Below are positions 41,996 to 52,115 of a stretch of DNA of 64,000 bases, one piece after another. Source of the stretch: a virus; the IMG/VR virus record IMGVR_UViG_3300032245_000473, positions 1 through 64,000 of that record. One strand, written 5' to 3'. The notes below the pieces were generated by a model that was not told the DNA's origin, did no database searches, and saw only the letters and a program-made list of their open reading frames with translations. The stretch's first letter is position 1. Each line of letters starts with the position of its first letter. The translations under genes were made by a program, and so were the position numbers.

Positions 41996-42808
41996 GTGAC
42001 CCTGTATGTGGTTCTGGGCGACGGCGAGATGCCGTCCAAGGAAGTGCCCCATCAACTGGAAGACCTGTGGGACAAGGCTGAGGCGGAGGACCAGAATTTC
42101 TGGTTCGCTCTGCTGGCCAAGGAACACCCCACCGCAACCGACTTGGAGTTGGTCAAGTTCTTCAACGCCAACGCCGTCCACTACGCCCTCATCGTGCCCG
42201 CAGATATGCAGGCACCCGACCTCTACACCGATGTCGCTGAGTACTTGGACGTGGACACCCCCAAGACCGGGGTGGACTTCGCCCTCAGTGAATTGGCTGA
42301 ACAGGGCGAGAAGACCGTCGCTCTGGCGCTCTTCAGCAACTTGGAAGAAGACGACCCGGCTGACGCCGAACTCATCGACTACATCGCCGCCGCTCTGGAG
42401 AAGGGTCGTGAGGTGTACGCCCTCAACGATTCCATGGAGCCGGTGGAAATCCGCACAGAAGAAGTGGCCCCGATGCCTGAGGCAACCGTGGTCCCGAAGC
42501 AGGAGGACCCCGTGGAATCAGCACCGGAAGTGGAAGATGCCCCCGACTTGGAGCCGTTGGACAAGCCCTATCTGGAGGGCCTGACCACGGCTGAATTGAA
42601 GGAACTGTGCAAGGGGATGGGCATTCCATACACCACTAAGGCTGCGGCCGTGGAAAACATCCTCGCCTACGAGGCTGCACCAGCCACAACCCACCCCGAA
42701 ATTGAGCGGATGTTGGACGAGCAGGATGAGATGGTCTTGGTGGTCATCCACTATCCCACCAGCATGGTGTCGAAGTGGGTCCCGGCTTCCGCTGTGGCAG
42801 GTCTGTGA
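41996..42808 (+). CDS. Acidic protein with C-terminal SAP/HeH-like motif
   Basis: A 270-residue, strongly acidic protein. Residues about 15-130 are alpha-helical and low in basic residues, and about 150-195 are a Glu/Pro linker. LTTAELKELCKGMGIPYTTKAA near 198-219 resembles a HeH/SAP-like (Rho N-terminal type) helix-extended-helix that binds nucleic acid. GTG start with GGAGG 8 nt upstream. The acidity could mean DNA mimicry or just a charged scaffold; not known. Confidence 0.6.
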   Translation: MTLYVVLGDGEMPSKEVPHQLEDLWDKAEAEDQNFWFALLAKEHPTATDLELVKFFNANAVHYALIVPADMQAPDLYTDVAEYLDVDTPKTGVDFALSELAEQGEKTVALALFSNLEEDDPADAELIDYIAAALEKGREVYALNDSMEPVEIRTEEVAPMPEATVVPKQEDPVESAPEVEDAPDLEPLDKPYLEGLTTAELKELCKGMGIPYTTKAAAVENILAYEAAPATTHPEIERMLDEQDEMVLVVIHYPTSMVSKWVPASAVAGL

Positions 42809-43287
42809 TGCAGACATTCGTTCCATACGGTGACGACTTTGAGCGCACCGCTCAGGTGCTGGACCGCCAGCGGCTGGGGAAGCAGCGAGTCGAAGCCTTC
42901 CAGATCGTCAAGGCTCTCACAGAGCCGACGTACGGGTGGAAGAATCACCCTGCCGTGAAAATGTGGGATGGGTACGTCGAAACGCTGGCGCAGTACGGCA
43001 TCGTCATGTGTCGTGAGTGGATTGGGCGGGGGTACAAGGACACGTTGCTGGAGCGGTTCTATCCGTACGCACCGTCGATGCAGTCGGACTGGCCTGAATG
43101 GCTTGACCGACCTGACGTGATGATCTCACACCGGTCGAACCTCATTCGCAAGCGCCCTGACATCTACCAGTCCGTGTGGCCCGATGTTCCCGGTGACCTC
43201 CCTTACGTCTGGCCAACCATGGAAGAGGAGAGTCATGCGAGGCCGACCGTGACTGACCAACTAGACCAAGCAGAGGAGAAACAATGA
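42808..43287 (+). CDS. Pyrimidine-dimer DNA glycosylase-like protein
   Basis: A 159-residue protein of the Pyr_excise type (the family of T4 DenV). Fits: MQTFVPYGDDFERTAQVLDR, LGKQRVEAFQIVKAL, YGWKNHPAVKMW, YGIVMCREWIGRGY and the C-terminal ISHRSNLIRKRPDIY and LPYVWP. The enzyme would cut UV-damaged pyrimidine dimers and nick the DNA. A phage of sunlit water or soil would benefit. TGATG overlap with the previous gene. Confidence 0.75.
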   Translation: MQTFVPYGDDFERTAQVLDRQRLGKQRVEAFQIVKALTEPTYGWKNHPAVKMWDGYVETLAQYGIVMCREWIGRGYKDTLLERFYPYAPSMQSDWPEWLDRPDVMISHRSNLIRKRPDIYQSVWPDVPGDLPYVWPTMEEESHARPTVTDQLDQAEEKQ

Positions 43288-44155: not shown

Positions 44156-44971
44156 ATGAGCATTCAAGCAATGTCCGAATGTTGGGGTCCTGACTTTCCC
44201 GTAACCACTGACCTACCGCTTGCCGAATCAACGATTCGACTAGTCGCTCTGGCAGTGGCCGATGTAGTCAACGACCTTTACGGCAACGAGTTCTTCAGTT
44301 CAGTTACCAAGTTGGCTACGAAAGTTGGCCTCAGCCGAGAGACGGTAGGACTGGTGCTGAGGCACTTGTGTGATACCGGAGTATTGGTGTTGGTAGAGAC
44401 TCGACCCGGCGGAACGACAAGATACCGATGGGTAGGGGTGACGGATCATCCGTCAGGTAGTTATCCACAACCTGTCGGAACCATCCGACAGGAGGTGACG
44501 GATGATCCGTCAGGGGGTGTCGGAACCATCCGTCACTATCCCAATAGAACCCAAGAGAGAACACAAGAAAGCCAACTACCGGCTGCGCCGGTCGTGGTAT
44601 CTCACTTCGGTAGTGATGGAGAAGAGAAGAACGAAGAACGTGATCCCGCTCCTGCCAGAGTCGTGGTCGACCAGTTTGAAGTTCTGTGGGGTCCGGTGGT
44701 GAGCCGCCATTCGGAGTACTGGTCCTACCCGGTGGTACCCCATCGGGTCGCCGCCTATTCATGGCTCAACAATCAGTACTTCAAGAACAAGAAACTTCCC
44801 GCCCGACCGGTGTCGCAGATGTTGGACTTGGTGAACTCGTTCATGCGGATGGTCGACACCGACCAGATCACACCAAAGCAGGGTTACAGCATCTGGCAGT
44901 GCTTCGTGGCGAACGTCGCCAAACTGGATGACACGACCTTCACCGCCCCAGCGCGTGAAATCGTGTATTGA
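44156..44971 (+). CDS. Replication initiator candidate (winged-helix, O-like)
   Basis: A 271-residue protein. Residues about 20-100 contain a winged-helix motif: SSVTKLATKVGLSRETVGLV is the helix-turn-helix and TRPGGTTRYRWVG the wing. A polar linker (about 100-145) is encoded by the iteron region, and the C-terminal part (about 160-271, EYWSYPVVPHRVAAYSWLNN) would contact the helicase loader. The layout with a DNA-binding N-terminus, origin in the middle of the gene and loader gene next in line is that of lambda O. Start has GGAGGAC. Confidence 0.7.
   Translation: MSIQAMSECWGPDFPVTTDLPLAESTIRLVALAVADVVNDLYGNEFFSSVTKLATKVGLSRETVGLVLRHLCDTGVLVLVETRPGGTTRYRWVGVTDHPSGSYPQPVGTIRQEVTDDPSGGVGTIRHYPNRTQERTQESQLPAAPVVVSHFGSDGEEKNEERDPAPARVVVDQFEVLWGPVVSRHSEYWSYPVVPHRVAAYSWLNNQYFKNKKLPARPVSQMLDLVNSFMRMVDTDQITPKQGYSIWQCFVANVAKLDDTTFTAPAREIVY
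44439..44535 (+). other. Putative replication origin: inverted iterons
   Basis: Four inverted repeats with the half-site TG(A/T)CGGA: 44439-44455, 44471-44492 (9-bp arms), 44496-44512 and 44518-44535 (one mismatch), so eight half-sites. Spacings of left half-sites are 34, 23 and 22 nt, about two helix turns for the last three. A perfect DnaA box lies between the first two. They are inside the initiator gene and encode repeated VTD-PSG and VGTIR peptides. An A-rich stretch (44536-44580) follows and could unwind. Confidence 0.6.
44461..44469 (+). promoter_or_regulatory. Perfect DnaA box
   Basis: TTATCCACA matches the consensus DnaA box exactly and lies between iteron pairs, as at many origins that use host DnaA. 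Confidence 0.6.
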
Positions 44972-45090: not shown

Positions 45091-45639
45091 GTGCCTGACT
45101 TCAGCGCACCCCGACAACAGATCGTTGACGACTTTATTGACGGGCTTTACGCCGATGGCCCTCGCTGCTTGTGGCTCTATGGCCCTCGCCAGTCCGGTAC
45201 CAGCACTTTGGCTCATCATGTCGCTCTGACCGTCAATCAGCATCTCATCGAAGGACGGCTTCTTTCCCTCCTGAACTACCCCCCGGGCGCACAGGTGAAG
45301 GCGTTTGAGTTGGAGGGGTTGCAGCGGGACATCTGGAAGTCCGAGTCCATTCTCCGTGTCAATGGCAATGACATCGGTTTGTGGGAAGAAGATCGGATTC
45401 TCAATGAACGGTGGGAGACTCTGATGGACTGCGACATTCTGTTCATCAACCAGTTGATTCAGCCGAACGTGGAGTTCTGGAAGAAGCACCTTCTTCTGTG
45501 TCTGGACAACCGTGTGAAGTCCGACCGTGTCACCCTTATCGCCGGTACCACTCCCCCTGAGGCGTTCGGCCCCGACTGGACCACCGGCTTCAATGCTCAG
45601 TGCATGGTTCGTAGGTTCGGTGCCCGTGGAGAAGGGTGA
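45091..45639 (+). CDS. AAA+ helicase loader (DnaC-like)
   Basis: A 182-residue ATPase of about the usual phage loader size. LYGPRQSGTSTLA near 29-41 is the Walker A, CDILFINQLIQP near 111-122 the Walker B (with Asn in place of the usual second acid), and SDRVTLIAGTTPPEAFG a sensor-1-like segment. It would place the DnaB-like helicase (next but one gene) on the origin. GTG start. Confidence 0.65.
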   Translation: MPDFSAPRQQIVDDFIDGLYADGPRCLWLYGPRQSGTSTLAHHVALTVNQHLIEGRLLSLLNYPPGAQVKAFELEGLQRDIWKSESILRVNGNDIGLWEEDRILNERWETLMDCDILFINQLIQPNVEFWKKHLLLCLDNRVKSDRVTLIAGTTPPEAFGPDWTTGFNAQCMVRRFGARGEG

Positions 45640-46051
45640 TCTGTCGGCTCACGCCACGCCCCGAATGGTGGCCGTGCTGGAGGGTGTCCTTGTGGATGTG
45701 GAGACAACCACGGAGAAGAAGGGACTGTTCGGGCGGGAGAAGGTGACTGGCGTGAACTGGTCGTGGCTGGACTTGCCGCTGAAGAATCTCGTCAGTATCA
45801 AACGACGGTTTCCTGACGTGGCCGTGGACGTGGTGACTTTCATGGGTGACGAAGCCGCCGAGCGGGCCAGCACCTTCTTCAACAAATACGGCATTGATGA
45901 CTTCAATGATGTCTACGCTGCCGACTTCAAGGAGTGGTGCTGGTCACTCTCCTTCCGACCCGAGATTGTGCAGGTGTACGACAGCGATATGGAACGCCTG
46001 TATCACTACGGCCAACGTGGGTTTGCGGTGGTCAAGGGGGCTGCTTTCTGA
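45626..46051 (+). CDS. Possible HAD-like fold protein
   Basis: A 141-residue protein; start GTG 45626 (14 nt overlap) is uncertain. MVAVLEGVLVDVETT, VVTFMGDEAAERA and VYDSDMERLYHYGQRGFAVV resemble HAD motifs I, II and IV, but the usual nucleophile Asp pair of motif I is replaced (LEGVLVD). If so it may be inactive or a binding version. TGATG links it to the helicase gene. Confidence 0.4.
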   Translation: MEKGDLSAHATPRMVAVLEGVLVDVETTTEKKGLFGREKVTGVNWSWLDLPLKNLVSIKRRFPDVAVDVVTFMGDEAAERASTFFNKYGIDDFNDVYAADFKEWCWSLSFRPEIVQVYDSDMERLYHYGQRGFAVVKGAAF

Positions 46052-47343
46052 TGGCGGACATTCAGCACGGCGCTCTTAGCAAGATGATTGTGGAGGGTGA
46101 CCTCCGCACTTTCATCGACGCCCGTATCACTGTTGACTTCTTCCCTGACGAGAAGTGGCGCAAGGTCTACCGATTCCTGCTGGACCATTGGAGGAAGTAC
46201 TCCACCCCTGCCACTACCGATGAGGTTCGCCGCTCCTACCCCACATACACGTGGGTGGAGGACGACCCTCAGCCCAGCCAGTACTACGTCGATGCTCTCC
46301 GTGAACGGCGCGAGTACGCCATCTACGTGGACGCCATCCAGCGTGCCAGCAACGCCGTGTTGGATGATGAGGAACCTGACAAGAACGTCATCATCCGTAG
46401 GCTTCTGCATGACGCCATCGTGCAGGCCAATACCGAAGCCAGTGCCAGCAGCGATGTGAACATTGTTGCTTCGTACACCGACATCCTGTACCGGCTGGGT
46501 CAGCGCCGAGACAATCCCGGCATGCTTCGCGGCATCACGACCGGATTCGACGGTATCGACTTCGTCACAGGGGGGTTACAGCCCGAACAGTTCATCGTGA
46601 TCACCGGTGTCCCGAAGAGCGGCAAGTCTTCGTTCCTGCTGTACATGGCTCTCAAAGTATTCATGGCGGGAAAGGTCCCGCTATTTGTCGGGTTTGAGAT
46701 GAGCAACGCCGAGCAGCAGGACCGCCTGACCTCCTTGATGAGCGGGGTTAGCCTGACCAATCTTTTGAACGGCACCACCACTCGCTCTGAGTGGCGCAAA
46801 GTCAACTCTGCATACAAGGCCCTTCATGGGATGCAGCCGTTCATCTTCTCGGCCGACGCCACCTCCAGCACCACGGTGTCATCCGTGCAGTCAAAGATTG
46901 CCGACCTGCGTCCTGACGTGGTCTTCGTAGACGGCATCTACATGATGGAATCCGACCGGCTGGACCCAAAGCAGTATCCCAAGGGGTCACCGCAGGTGCT
47001 GACTGACATCAGCCGTTCCCTGAAACAGTTGGCTCAATCGGCCAAACTTCCTATCGTGGTTTCGACGCAGTCGCTGGTGTCCCGTGCCAAAGGAGGACTG
47101 ACCCTGTCCAGTATCGGCTACACCAGCGCCTTCGGTCAGGACGCCGATGTGATTCTTGGTGTGGAGCGGCAGGCTGACAGCAACATCAGCAAGTTCCATG
47201 TCATGGAATCCCGTTCCGGTCCCCGCAAGGATGTGTATGTGGAGTGGGACTGGACCCGTGGTTACGTGGGTGAAATCGACTCCGCCATCTGGACCCCTCA
47301 GTCCCGAGCGCAGAACCAAGGTAAGAACTTTGGCACACCTTGA
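46051..47343 (+). CDS. Replicative helicase, DnaB-like
   Basis: A 430-residue RecA-fold helicase. The N-terminal 150 residues are helical; LRGITTGFDGIDFVTGGLQ near 158-176 begins the ATPase, ITGVPKSGKSSF is the Walker A near 183-194, LFVGFEMSNAEQQDRL the H1a-like Glu region near 212-227, and DVVFVDGIYMME the Walker B near 289-300. LPIVVSTQSLVSRAKG matches the segment with the conserved Gln. It would unwind the fork with the primase next door. Start in a TGATG overlap. Confidence 0.75.
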   Translation: MADIQHGALSKMIVEGDLRTFIDARITVDFFPDEKWRKVYRFLLDHWRKYSTPATTDEVRRSYPTYTWVEDDPQPSQYYVDALRERREYAIYVDAIQRASNAVLDDEEPDKNVIIRRLLHDAIVQANTEASASSDVNIVASYTDILYRLGQRRDNPGMLRGITTGFDGIDFVTGGLQPEQFIVITGVPKSGKSSFLLYMALKVFMAGKVPLFVGFEMSNAEQQDRLTSLMSGVSLTNLLNGTTTRSEWRKVNSAYKALHGMQPFIFSADATSSTTVSSVQSKIADLRPDVVFVDGIYMMESDRLDPKQYPKGSPQVLTDISRSLKQLAQSAKLPIVVSTQSLVSRAKGGLTLSSIGYTSAFGQDADVILGVERQADSNISKFHVMESRSGPRKDVYVEWDWTRGYVGEIDSAIWTPQSRAQNQGKNFGTP

Positions 47344-48265
47344 CGTAGCCGCAGTTCTCGCCCAAGCCGGTGTCCGCAACATTCGTGAGGGCCAGAAGGA
47401 AATCACCGGGTCTTGCCCCATGCACCAGCAACGTGTAGGGAAGTCGGACGCACATGCTTCATGGTCGATGAACCGCCACACCTTCGTGCATCACTGCTTC
47501 TCCTGCGGGTATGCAGGGACTCTCACCGGCTTGCTGATCGACTTGCAGGGCTACGCCCCCGACGACATTGAAACCATGGTCAAGGCTTCCACCTTGGCCA
47601 GCAACATCAAGAAGATTGAGCAGAAGCAGGAGGAACCGGAACGGCGTGCCGCTACCGAGTGGGAAATGGCCAATGTTCTCACCGATGTTCCCGAGCGTCT
47701 GCTTTCCTTGCGCCACCTTTCATTGGAAGCAGCCAACACCTACGGTGTCCGTTGGGATAGCACGCTCAGGTCGTGGGTTCTTCCCATCCGTGACCCACAG
47801 GGAACCCTGCTGGGGGCGCAATACCGTCAGAAGGGGAACGTACTCAACCTCCCGCAGGGGCTGGAGAAGAGTGTGACCTTGTTCGGGTTCTGCGAGATGC
47901 GGCACCACAACCGTGTGGCCTTGGTGGAATCCCCTCTGGATGCGGTGCGTCTGTACGGGCTAGGTATCCCTGCTGTTTCATCCTTTGGTGCGTGGGTATC
48001 ACCCACCCAAGTTGAGTTGTTGGCGCGCAACTTCACTTCCGTAGTAATGATGTTGGACAACGATAAGGCCGGTAAGGAAGCCACTGCTCACACGGCAGAA
48101 GCACTTCGTCGACGTGGTACTGTTGCAATCCCTTTCTCATACCGTGGTATGGACGCCAAAGACCCCGGTGATGTCGAGGACGACAGCATGCTCCTCGCCA
48201 ACTGGGAGTGGTCGTTGTCCAACCTTCGTTTCATCGCCCCGCCCCCGAAGAAGATGAAGCGATGA
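47330..48265 (+). CDS. DNA primase (DnaG-like, zinc finger plus TOPRIM)
   Basis: A 311-residue primase. TTG 47330 is the best start (AAGGT upstream, 14 nt overlap). Zinc finger: GSCPMHQQ (CPMH) and HHCFSCGYAG near 49-58. TOPRIM: RVALVESPLDAVRLYGLG near 193-210 (the Glu) and VVMMLDNDKAGKEA near 239-252 (the DxD). Together with the helicase it makes the primers of lagging strands. TGA overlaps the next ATG. Confidence 0.75.
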   Translation: MAHLDVAAVLAQAGVRNIREGQKEITGSCPMHQQRVGKSDAHASWSMNRHTFVHHCFSCGYAGTLTGLLIDLQGYAPDDIETMVKASTLASNIKKIEQKQEEPERRAATEWEMANVLTDVPERLLSLRHLSLEAANTYGVRWDSTLRSWVLPIRDPQGTLLGAQYRQKGNVLNLPQGLEKSVTLFGFCEMRHHNRVALVESPLDAVRLYGLGIPAVSSFGAWVSPTQVELLARNFTSVVMMLDNDKAGKEATAHTAEALRRRGTVAIPFSYRGMDAKDPGDVEDDSMLLANWEWSLSNLRFIAPPPKKMKR

Positions 48266-51683: not shown

Positions 51684-52115
51684 TCATCCCTTGGTAGATG
51701 CAGTGAGGAACCACGCCCATTTCTGATGGTGGTCGATTCGGTCAGCCAAGAAGTTGGCGATCCCCTGCTGCTTCTCTTCCGTGGCCTCATCAAATGCGGT
51801 GTTCATCGTCTTGAGGACGCCTTCGTTCAACTTTAGCAGAGCGCGAGCCATGGCCTGCGGTTCCTTCTTCGTGGTAGGGAACGACACAGTCCGGTTGTCG
51901 ATGAAGGTCTGGAGATTGAAGTGGGCGTACTCACCCAACTTCCTCAGGTTTTCTGCGATGGGGTCGATACTCCCGTAAACATCGTCGTAGATGTCTCCAA
52001 ACAGAGAGTGGTACTGATTGAAGTCCTGACCTTCCACGTTCCAGTGATACCCGTGAGCCACGAAGTACATGGTCACTACGTCGGCAAGCAGGGTGTTCAG
52101 GGTCTTCTTGAGCAT
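51684..52115 (-). CDS. dps: Dps-like ferritin
   Basis: A 143-residue protein of the Dps family: LLADVVTMYFVAHGYHWNVEG near 9-29 with the ferroxidase His, FLADRIDHHQKWAWFL near 123-138 and the HFNLQTF segment. Dps forms a 12-mer that binds iron and DNA and protects from peroxide. It is the only minus-strand gene of the window and sits opposite a strong plus-strand promoter, so it is a separate unit, perhaps picked up from the host. ATG 52115 start; no strong site visible. Confidence 0.75.
   Translation of the reverse strand: MLKKTLNTLLADVVTMYFVAHGYHWNVEGQDFNQYHSLFGDIYDDVYGSIDPIAENLRKLGEYAHFNLQTFIDNRTVSFPTTKKEPQAMARALLKLNEGVLKTMNTAFDEATEEKQQGIANFLADRIDHHQKWAWFLTASTKG

What the first reader, a model, noticed from the sequence alone, without database searches (positions are those of the whole stretch)
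44439..44535. Replication origin built into the initiator gene
Eight TG(A/T)CGGA half-sites in four inverted repeats plus a perfect TTATCCACA DnaA box lie inside the gene of a winged-helix protein, which is followed by a loader, DnaB-like helicase and primase. The layout is that of lambda O but with inverted iterons alternating A and T at the third base and a host DnaA box. The gene must keep both a peptide repeat (VTD-PSG, VGTIR) and DNA sites.
Basis: partly seen in the sequence, partly recalled or inferred. Interest (0 to 1): 0.8.

Follow-up and report, generated by a model that had tools for sequence, protein, structure and literature searches.

The report
Lambda-type phage origin inside initiator gene
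This uncultured phage seems to start copying its DNA at a cluster of mirror-image sites hidden inside the gene for the protein that should bind them, as phage lambda does, and its relatives keep the sites' layout while changing both the DNA word and the protein letters.

Summary
Eight TGWCGGA half-sites (four inverted repeats, the fourth imperfect) and the only exact TTATCCACA in the 74-kb record lie in codons 95-127 of a 271-aa winged-helix protein that matches phage replication-initiator families.

A 63%-identical homologue keeps the same half-site spacing and the DnaA box, but with another half-site (TGACAAC) and another peptide. A 37-40% homologue uses TGACCC. A soil clade uses GTGCAGA or TGCAAA pairs. 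The palindromes exceed protein-preserving codon shuffles, and identical-residue codons are unusually conserved in the linker.

The hairpin's arms covary across relatives around a fixed C-TNC-G loop.

Array, A/T-rich tract and hairpin in the linker between a winged helix and a C-terminal domain is the lambda O/ori layout. Downstream lie an AAA+ loader-like protein without the Walker-A lysine, a conserved 141-aa ORF, a DnaB-like helicase and a primase.

I read this as a lambda-type origin, a new variant of a known kind. The peptide repeat is a by-product. DnaA use, binding and origin activity are untested.

The parts
44156..44971 (+). initiator gene, 271 aa (P0001): N-terminal winged helix, disordered linker, C-terminal helical domain
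   Evidence: PHROG replication-initiation / O-like families E 9e-6 to 4e-4; AlphaFold model; structure neighbours include phage replication protein O and replisome organizer entries
44162..44440 (+). winged-helix DNA-binding domain (residues about 3-95)
   Evidence: predicted elements H24-37 E45-49 H50-57 H61-73 E77-82 E87-92
44439..44455 (+). iteron 1, TGACGGATCATCCGTCA
44461..44469 (+). DnaA box TTATCCACA, in the place of one half-site
   Evidence: only copy in the record; kept with identical flanks in L004
44473..44490 (+). iteron 2, TGTCGGAACCATCCGACA
44496..44512 (+). iteron 3, TGACGGATGATCCGTCA
44518..44535 (+). iteron 4, TGTCGGAACCATCCGTCA (imperfect)
44533..44577 (+). A/T- and purine-rich tract, candidate unwinding element
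   Evidence: 58% A+T; only 1.2% of 45-bp windows in the window are as rich; same position in relatives and in lambda
44578..44592 (+). hairpin ACCGGC-TGC-GCCGGT
   Evidence: arms covary across relatives with fixed C-TNC-G loop; folds as ssDNA
44651..44929 (+). C-terminal helical domain (residues 166-258), presumed loader/helicase contact
   Evidence: the part kept in Streptomyces phages next to a DnaC-like loader
45091..45639 (+). AAA+ helicase-loader-like protein lacking the Walker-A lysine (GPRQSGTST)
   Evidence: hhalign with DnaC-like loaders prob 95, E 3e-8; Foldseek IstB, 'bacterial initiation protein' 5he8, DnaC
45626..46051 (+). 141-aa ORF of unknown function, just upstream of the helicase in nearly all relatives
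   Evidence: 122 ORF hits among the fetched loci
46051..47343 (+). DnaB-like replicative helicase
   Evidence: phrog_19 E 4e-56, DnaB_C E 5e-31
47330..48265 (+). primase (zinc ribbon + Toprim)
   Evidence: phrog_47 E 2.8e-28, Toprim_2

Best explanation
44439-44592 is a lambda-type replication origin inside the gene of its own initiator. Dimers of the winged-helix protein bind the four inverted repeats (iterons), which lie in helical register and should form one O-some-like complex. That complex strains and opens the adjacent A/T-rich tract. The protein's C-terminal domain recruits the AAA+ loader encoded next door, which places the phage's own DnaB-like helicase on the opened strand; the phage primase then starts synthesis. 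The hairpin after the A/T tract may form on the opened strand and fix the end of the bubble or aid helicase/primase loading. In this lineage host DnaA may help through the single box. Shown here: the sites, their conservation in layout but not sequence, the tract, the covarying hairpin, and the protein families. Inferred: binding, opening, loading and the hairpin's job.
For: Sites confirmed and non-random. Initiator family match and winged-helix / disordered-linker / helical-domain model, with the array starting where the winged helix ends. Relatives keep the layout with different half-sites and peptides; L004 has the same half-site spacing as the window. Half-site type follows the winged-helix type: L017/L027 and L009/L072 share both. 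L017 vs L044 share an 85% C-terminus and the hairpin but only a 29% N-terminus and no iterons. Linker codons are conserved beyond residue-matched expectation (0.869 vs 0.747, 3/20000 draws). A/T tract and hairpin in the same order in relatives. Lambda control: iterons at the matching place in O, then an A/T-rich purine tract, then an imperfect palindrome; published ori-lambda anatomy agrees (PMC6022878, PMC5043065). Loader, helicase and primase downstream.
Against: No binding, unwinding or replication data. The A/T tract is modest (58%). GC skew has no turn at 44.4 kb; its minimum is broad, 42-56 kb, lowest at 55.6 kb. Some relatives lack a clear array: L006 (initiator split), L079, several freshwater loci, and the Streptomyces phages, which keep only the C-terminal domain. 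The loader's P-loop lacks its lysine.
Confidence: 0.88

Rival explanations
1. The palindromes are operator sites through which the winged-helix protein represses its own gene or operon; they are not an origin.
For: Winged-helix dimers bind such palindromes; several structural neighbours are repressors.
Against: The sites lie about 280 bp inside the gene. An A/T tract and a covarying hairpin follow, in lambda order. Family matches are replication initiators and the neighbours are loader, helicase and primase. Binding sites of an initiator can also regulate, so the two do not exclude each other.
Confidence: 0.06
2. The repeats act in the mRNA as hairpins (attenuation, translation control or pausing).
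For: Arms pair in single strands and the segment folds strongly; the downstream hairpin covaries.
Against: Iteron spacing is in helical phase, which matters for DNA, not RNA. Half-sites are near identical between palindromes within a phage, which RNA pairing does not need. In some freshwater relatives the repeats are direct (GGGGCATACA x3), with no hairpin in the repeats themselves.
Confidence: 0.03
3. Low-complexity repeat in a disordered linker, produced by duplication and without DNA function.
For: Linker predicted disordered; the two halves of the array look like a duplication (D2 and D3).
Against: 0 of 300 synonymous shuffles reach the palindrome content. Relatives carry different words in the same layout, which duplication alone does not give. 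Codons are conserved in the linker.
Confidence: 0.02

Closest known systems
Phage lambda O gene / ori-lambda and the Stx-phage relatives (PMC6022878, PMC7466680, PMC5043065)
   Same: Origin in the linker codons of a winged-helix initiator; four 17-18-bp inverted repeats at about 20-34-bp steps; A/T-rich tract on the 3' side; an imperfect palindrome after it (visible); loader gene downstream.
   Different: Different half-site words; a DnaA box among the repeats; phage-encoded DnaB-like helicase and primase; AAA+ loader-like protein instead of lambda P; no BLAST-level similarity and only a weak O-like profile match; winged-helix domain and iterons exchanged between relatives.
Iteron plasmid origins with a DnaA box (general knowledge; reviewed in PMC4980987, not read in detail here)
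   Same: Initiator-bound repeats, A/T-rich element, DnaA box.
   Different: Their origins normally lie beside the rep gene, usually with direct repeats; here they are inside the coding sequence and inverted.
Replication modules of Streptomyces phages Alone3, BRock and pSt2308
   Same: Related helicase, primase and 141-aa ORF, and the C-terminal initiator domain next to a DnaC-like loader.
   Different: Only a 152-157-aa ORF with the C-terminal domain; no palindrome array found in that stretch.

Membership tests
lambda-type origin (ori-lambda) | origin lies inside the initiator gene, between DNA-binding and C-terminal domains | tested here: met
   array at codons 95-127; winged helix to residue 95, disordered 97-162, helical 166-258
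lambda-type origin (ori-lambda) | four inverted-repeat iterons of about 18-19 bp | tested here: met
   four of 17-18 bp, the fourth imperfect
lambda-type origin (ori-lambda) | A/T-rich tract of about 40 bp next to the last iteron | tested here: met
   44533-44577, 58% A+T vs 43% mean; relatives 56-64%
lambda-type origin (ori-lambda) | initiator dimer binds each iteron; O-some opens the tract | not testable with these tools
   needs purified protein
lambda O protein family | sequence homology to O | tested here: inconclusive
   phrog_391 O-like E 1.8e-4 over residues 1-91; no tblastn hit in 50,697 phage records
lambda-type module | helicase loader encoded next to the initiator | tested here: met
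   AAA+ fold related to IstB/DnaC/DnaI-type proteins, though not lambda P-like and without the Walker-A lysine
lambda-type module | uses the host DnaB helicase and primase | tested here: not met
   phage encodes a DnaB-like helicase and a primase; so it works like ori-lambda but is not filed as a lambda O-P module
DnaA-dependent origin | DnaA box required | not testable with these tools
   box exact and kept in L004 but absent inside the gene in nearly all other relatives

The most novel reading that the evidence does not exclude
These phages carry an exchangeable initiation cassette. The winged-helix domain and its iterons, being parts of one stretch of coding DNA, are swapped or changed together, while the C-terminal domain and a DNA hairpin with a C-GNA-G loop on the bottom strand stay. 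That hairpin is a single-strand signal for loading the phage's helicase or primase.
Probability: 0.35. Interest if true: 0.7.

Novelty: new variant of a known kind. Interest (0 to 1): 0.5.

Why it matters
It extends the lambda type of origin to a large group of uncultured phages that bring their own helicase and primase. It also gives a natural series in which the recognised DNA word, the binding domain and the peptide all change while the site layout stays. That makes the old question of how an initiator and its sites change together, inside one coding sequence, directly testable. It also points to a covarying hairpin of unknown use at the end of the opening region.

Tried and rejected
Family searches with a wrong primase start failed and were repeated; one paper query was malformed. 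Search of the initiator in solved structures by sequence: nothing useful. Close relatives in GenBank phages: none for the window initiator, the loader or the soil-clade initiator. Prophage relatives in GTDB genomes: none. Streptomyces phages as a source of arrays: first guess (the 324-375-aa gene) was wrong; the homologue is the 152-157-aa ORF before the DnaC-like loader, and no array was seen. GC skew as origin evidence: no sharp turn. A UNCG RNA tetraloop for the hairpin was rejected by inspection: the closing pair would be mismatched, so it is a triloop. Caveat: hairpin centres were found by requiring a TNC loop and 7-bp arms, or by eye for the window lineage; the first listing used no loop rule and gave the same hairpins in the soil clade. 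The residue-matched null treats codon columns as independent.

Full report
OBSERVATION. The window is part of a 74,076-bp IMG/VR virus record. In 44439-44535 there are eight TGWCGGA half-sites in four inverted repeats: TGACGGA-tca-TCCGTCA, TGTCGGA-acca-TCCGACA, TGACGGA-tga-TCCGTCA and the imperfect TGTCGGA-acca-TCCGTCA. TTATCCACA at 44461 is the only exact copy in the record. Counting the DnaA box as one slot, the start-to-start steps are 10,12,12,11,12,10,12,11 bp. This is the strongest 7-mer cluster in the record. Palindrome content exceeded all 300 protein-preserving codon shuffles in the window gene, L004, L005, L007, L009, L027 and L072. It was weaker in L017, L010, L016, L044 and L035: 4, 2, 19, 21 and 35 of 300 shuffles reached it.

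THE GENE. ORF 44156-44971 encodes 271 aa. PHROG matches are replication initiation and O-like families, E 9e-6 to 4e-4; Pfam gives only sub-threshold helix-turn-helix hits. The AlphaFold model (mean pLDDT 66, moderate) shows a winged helix to residue 95, a disordered stretch 97-162 and four helices in 166-258. The array begins at the last codon of the winged helix. Viral structure neighbours include replication protein O and replisome organizer entries; the PDB search gave no match at E 0.001.

RELATIVES. A scan with the helicase gave 80 loci. Profile iteration found the initiator family upstream of the helicase in the window group and a soil clade, and later a freshwater group. The names soil and freshwater are my labels for the groups of metagenome contigs, not checked habitats. 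In L004 (initiator 63% identical) the array has the window's layout with TGACAAC half-sites (one degenerate), and the stretch GTCAGGTAGTTATCCACAACCTG is kept, including the DnaA box; codons SGSYPQP are identical 7 of 7. The peptide around it changed (VTDHPSG to VTTTLSG, VGTIR to DNHAD). L005 (37-40%) has TGACCC/GGGTCA repeats and no DnaA box. Soil phages carry GTGCAGA-a-TCTGCAC twice 24 bp apart, or TGCAAA-type repeats. L016 has GGAACGTGGTTCC three times. L007 shows GATGCA repeats by eye. Some freshwater loci have GGGGCATACA three times, 12-13 bp apart. Half-site type follows the winged-helix type. Between L017 and L044 the N-terminus is 29% and the C-terminus 85% identical; iterons differ but the hairpin stays. 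The pattern suggests that binding domain and sites change together.

CONSTRAINT. In 14 soil-clade genes, identical-residue codons in the linker are the same in 0.869 of pairs against 0.747 expected from residue-matched codons elsewhere in the gene; 3 of 20,000 draws reached this (profile). A second peak at codons 207-237 is not explained.

A/T TRACT AND HAIRPIN. After the array comes a 45-bp A/T- and purine-rich tract (44533-44577, 58% A+T, as rich as only 1.2% of windows; relatives 56-64%, top 0.03-0.21% in their loci). Then comes a hairpin, ACCGGC-TGC-GCCGGT. In 11 distinct sequences 96.6% of cells pair (59.5% in shuffles), seven of eight pairs change on both sides, and the closing C-G with loop T-N-C does not vary. 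On the other strand the loop is G-N-A closed by C-G; from general knowledge such DNA triloops are unusually stable, and folding energies here favour the bottom strand only slightly. L005 has a hairpin in the same place with another loop.

LAMBDA CONTROL. In lambda the four annotated iterons lie at codons 117-144 of O, followed by an A/T-rich purine tract (76%) and an imperfect palindrome, GTCAGAG...CTCTGAC. Published descriptions agree: four 18-19-bp inverted repeats each bound by an O dimer, and a 39-40-bp A/T-rich region inside O (PMC6022878, PMC5043065). Stx phages have six iterons, and the two extra ones add 13 amino acids to O (PMC7466680), so linker peptide in lambda-type initiators is free to follow the DNA. 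The same is seen here.

NEIGHBOURS. 45091-45639 matches DnaC-like loaders of relatives (hhalign prob 95, E 3e-8) and folds like IstB, DnaI-type and DnaC AAA+ proteins, but its P-loop is GPRxSGTST without lysine in the whole window lineage. Then come the conserved 141-aa ORF, DnaB-like helicase and primase.

CONCLUSION. The refutation test offered came out opposite to refutation. What is new is the extension to the A/T tract and hairpin, the layout conservation with changing words, and the domain exchange. Origin activity, DnaA use and hairpin function remain inferred. GC skew gives no clear support.

Noticed in passing
window 45091-45639; L003-L006: AAA+ loader-like protein with the Walker-A lysine replaced (GPRxSGTST) in all members of this lineage, while soil, freshwater and Streptomyces-phage loaders keep GKT/RKT.
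   Followed up: partly
window 45626-46051: 141-aa ORF of unknown function directly upstream of the DnaB-like helicase in nearly all relatives, including Streptomyces phages; no family hit.
   Followed up: partly
L019 3946-3965, L009 4131-4150, L010 4172-4191, L027 3969-3983: A second GC-rich inverted repeat directly after the triloop hairpin in the soil clade (ACCGCGCC-NNNN-GGCGCGGT or CAGGGCGACGCCCTG).
   Followed up: no
L006 3050-4054: The initiator appears split into a winged-helix ORF and a separate C-terminal ORF, with a GC-rich repeat stretch between and no clear iteron array.
   Followed up: no
L010, L018, L044, L118, L120-L123: Initiators with an unrelated helix-turn-helix N-terminus but the same C-terminal domain and hairpin as the soil clade.
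   Followed up: partly
L017 4162-4254 (codons 207-237): A second stretch of high synonymous-site conservation in the soil-clade initiator gene, unexplained.
   Followed up: no
window 42775-43287: ORF matching pyrimidine dimer DNA glycosylase (PF03013, E 1e-24).
   Followed up: no
window 51684-52115 (-): Reverse-strand ORF that reads like a Dps/ferritin-like DNA-protection protein (by eye; not searched).
   Followed up: no
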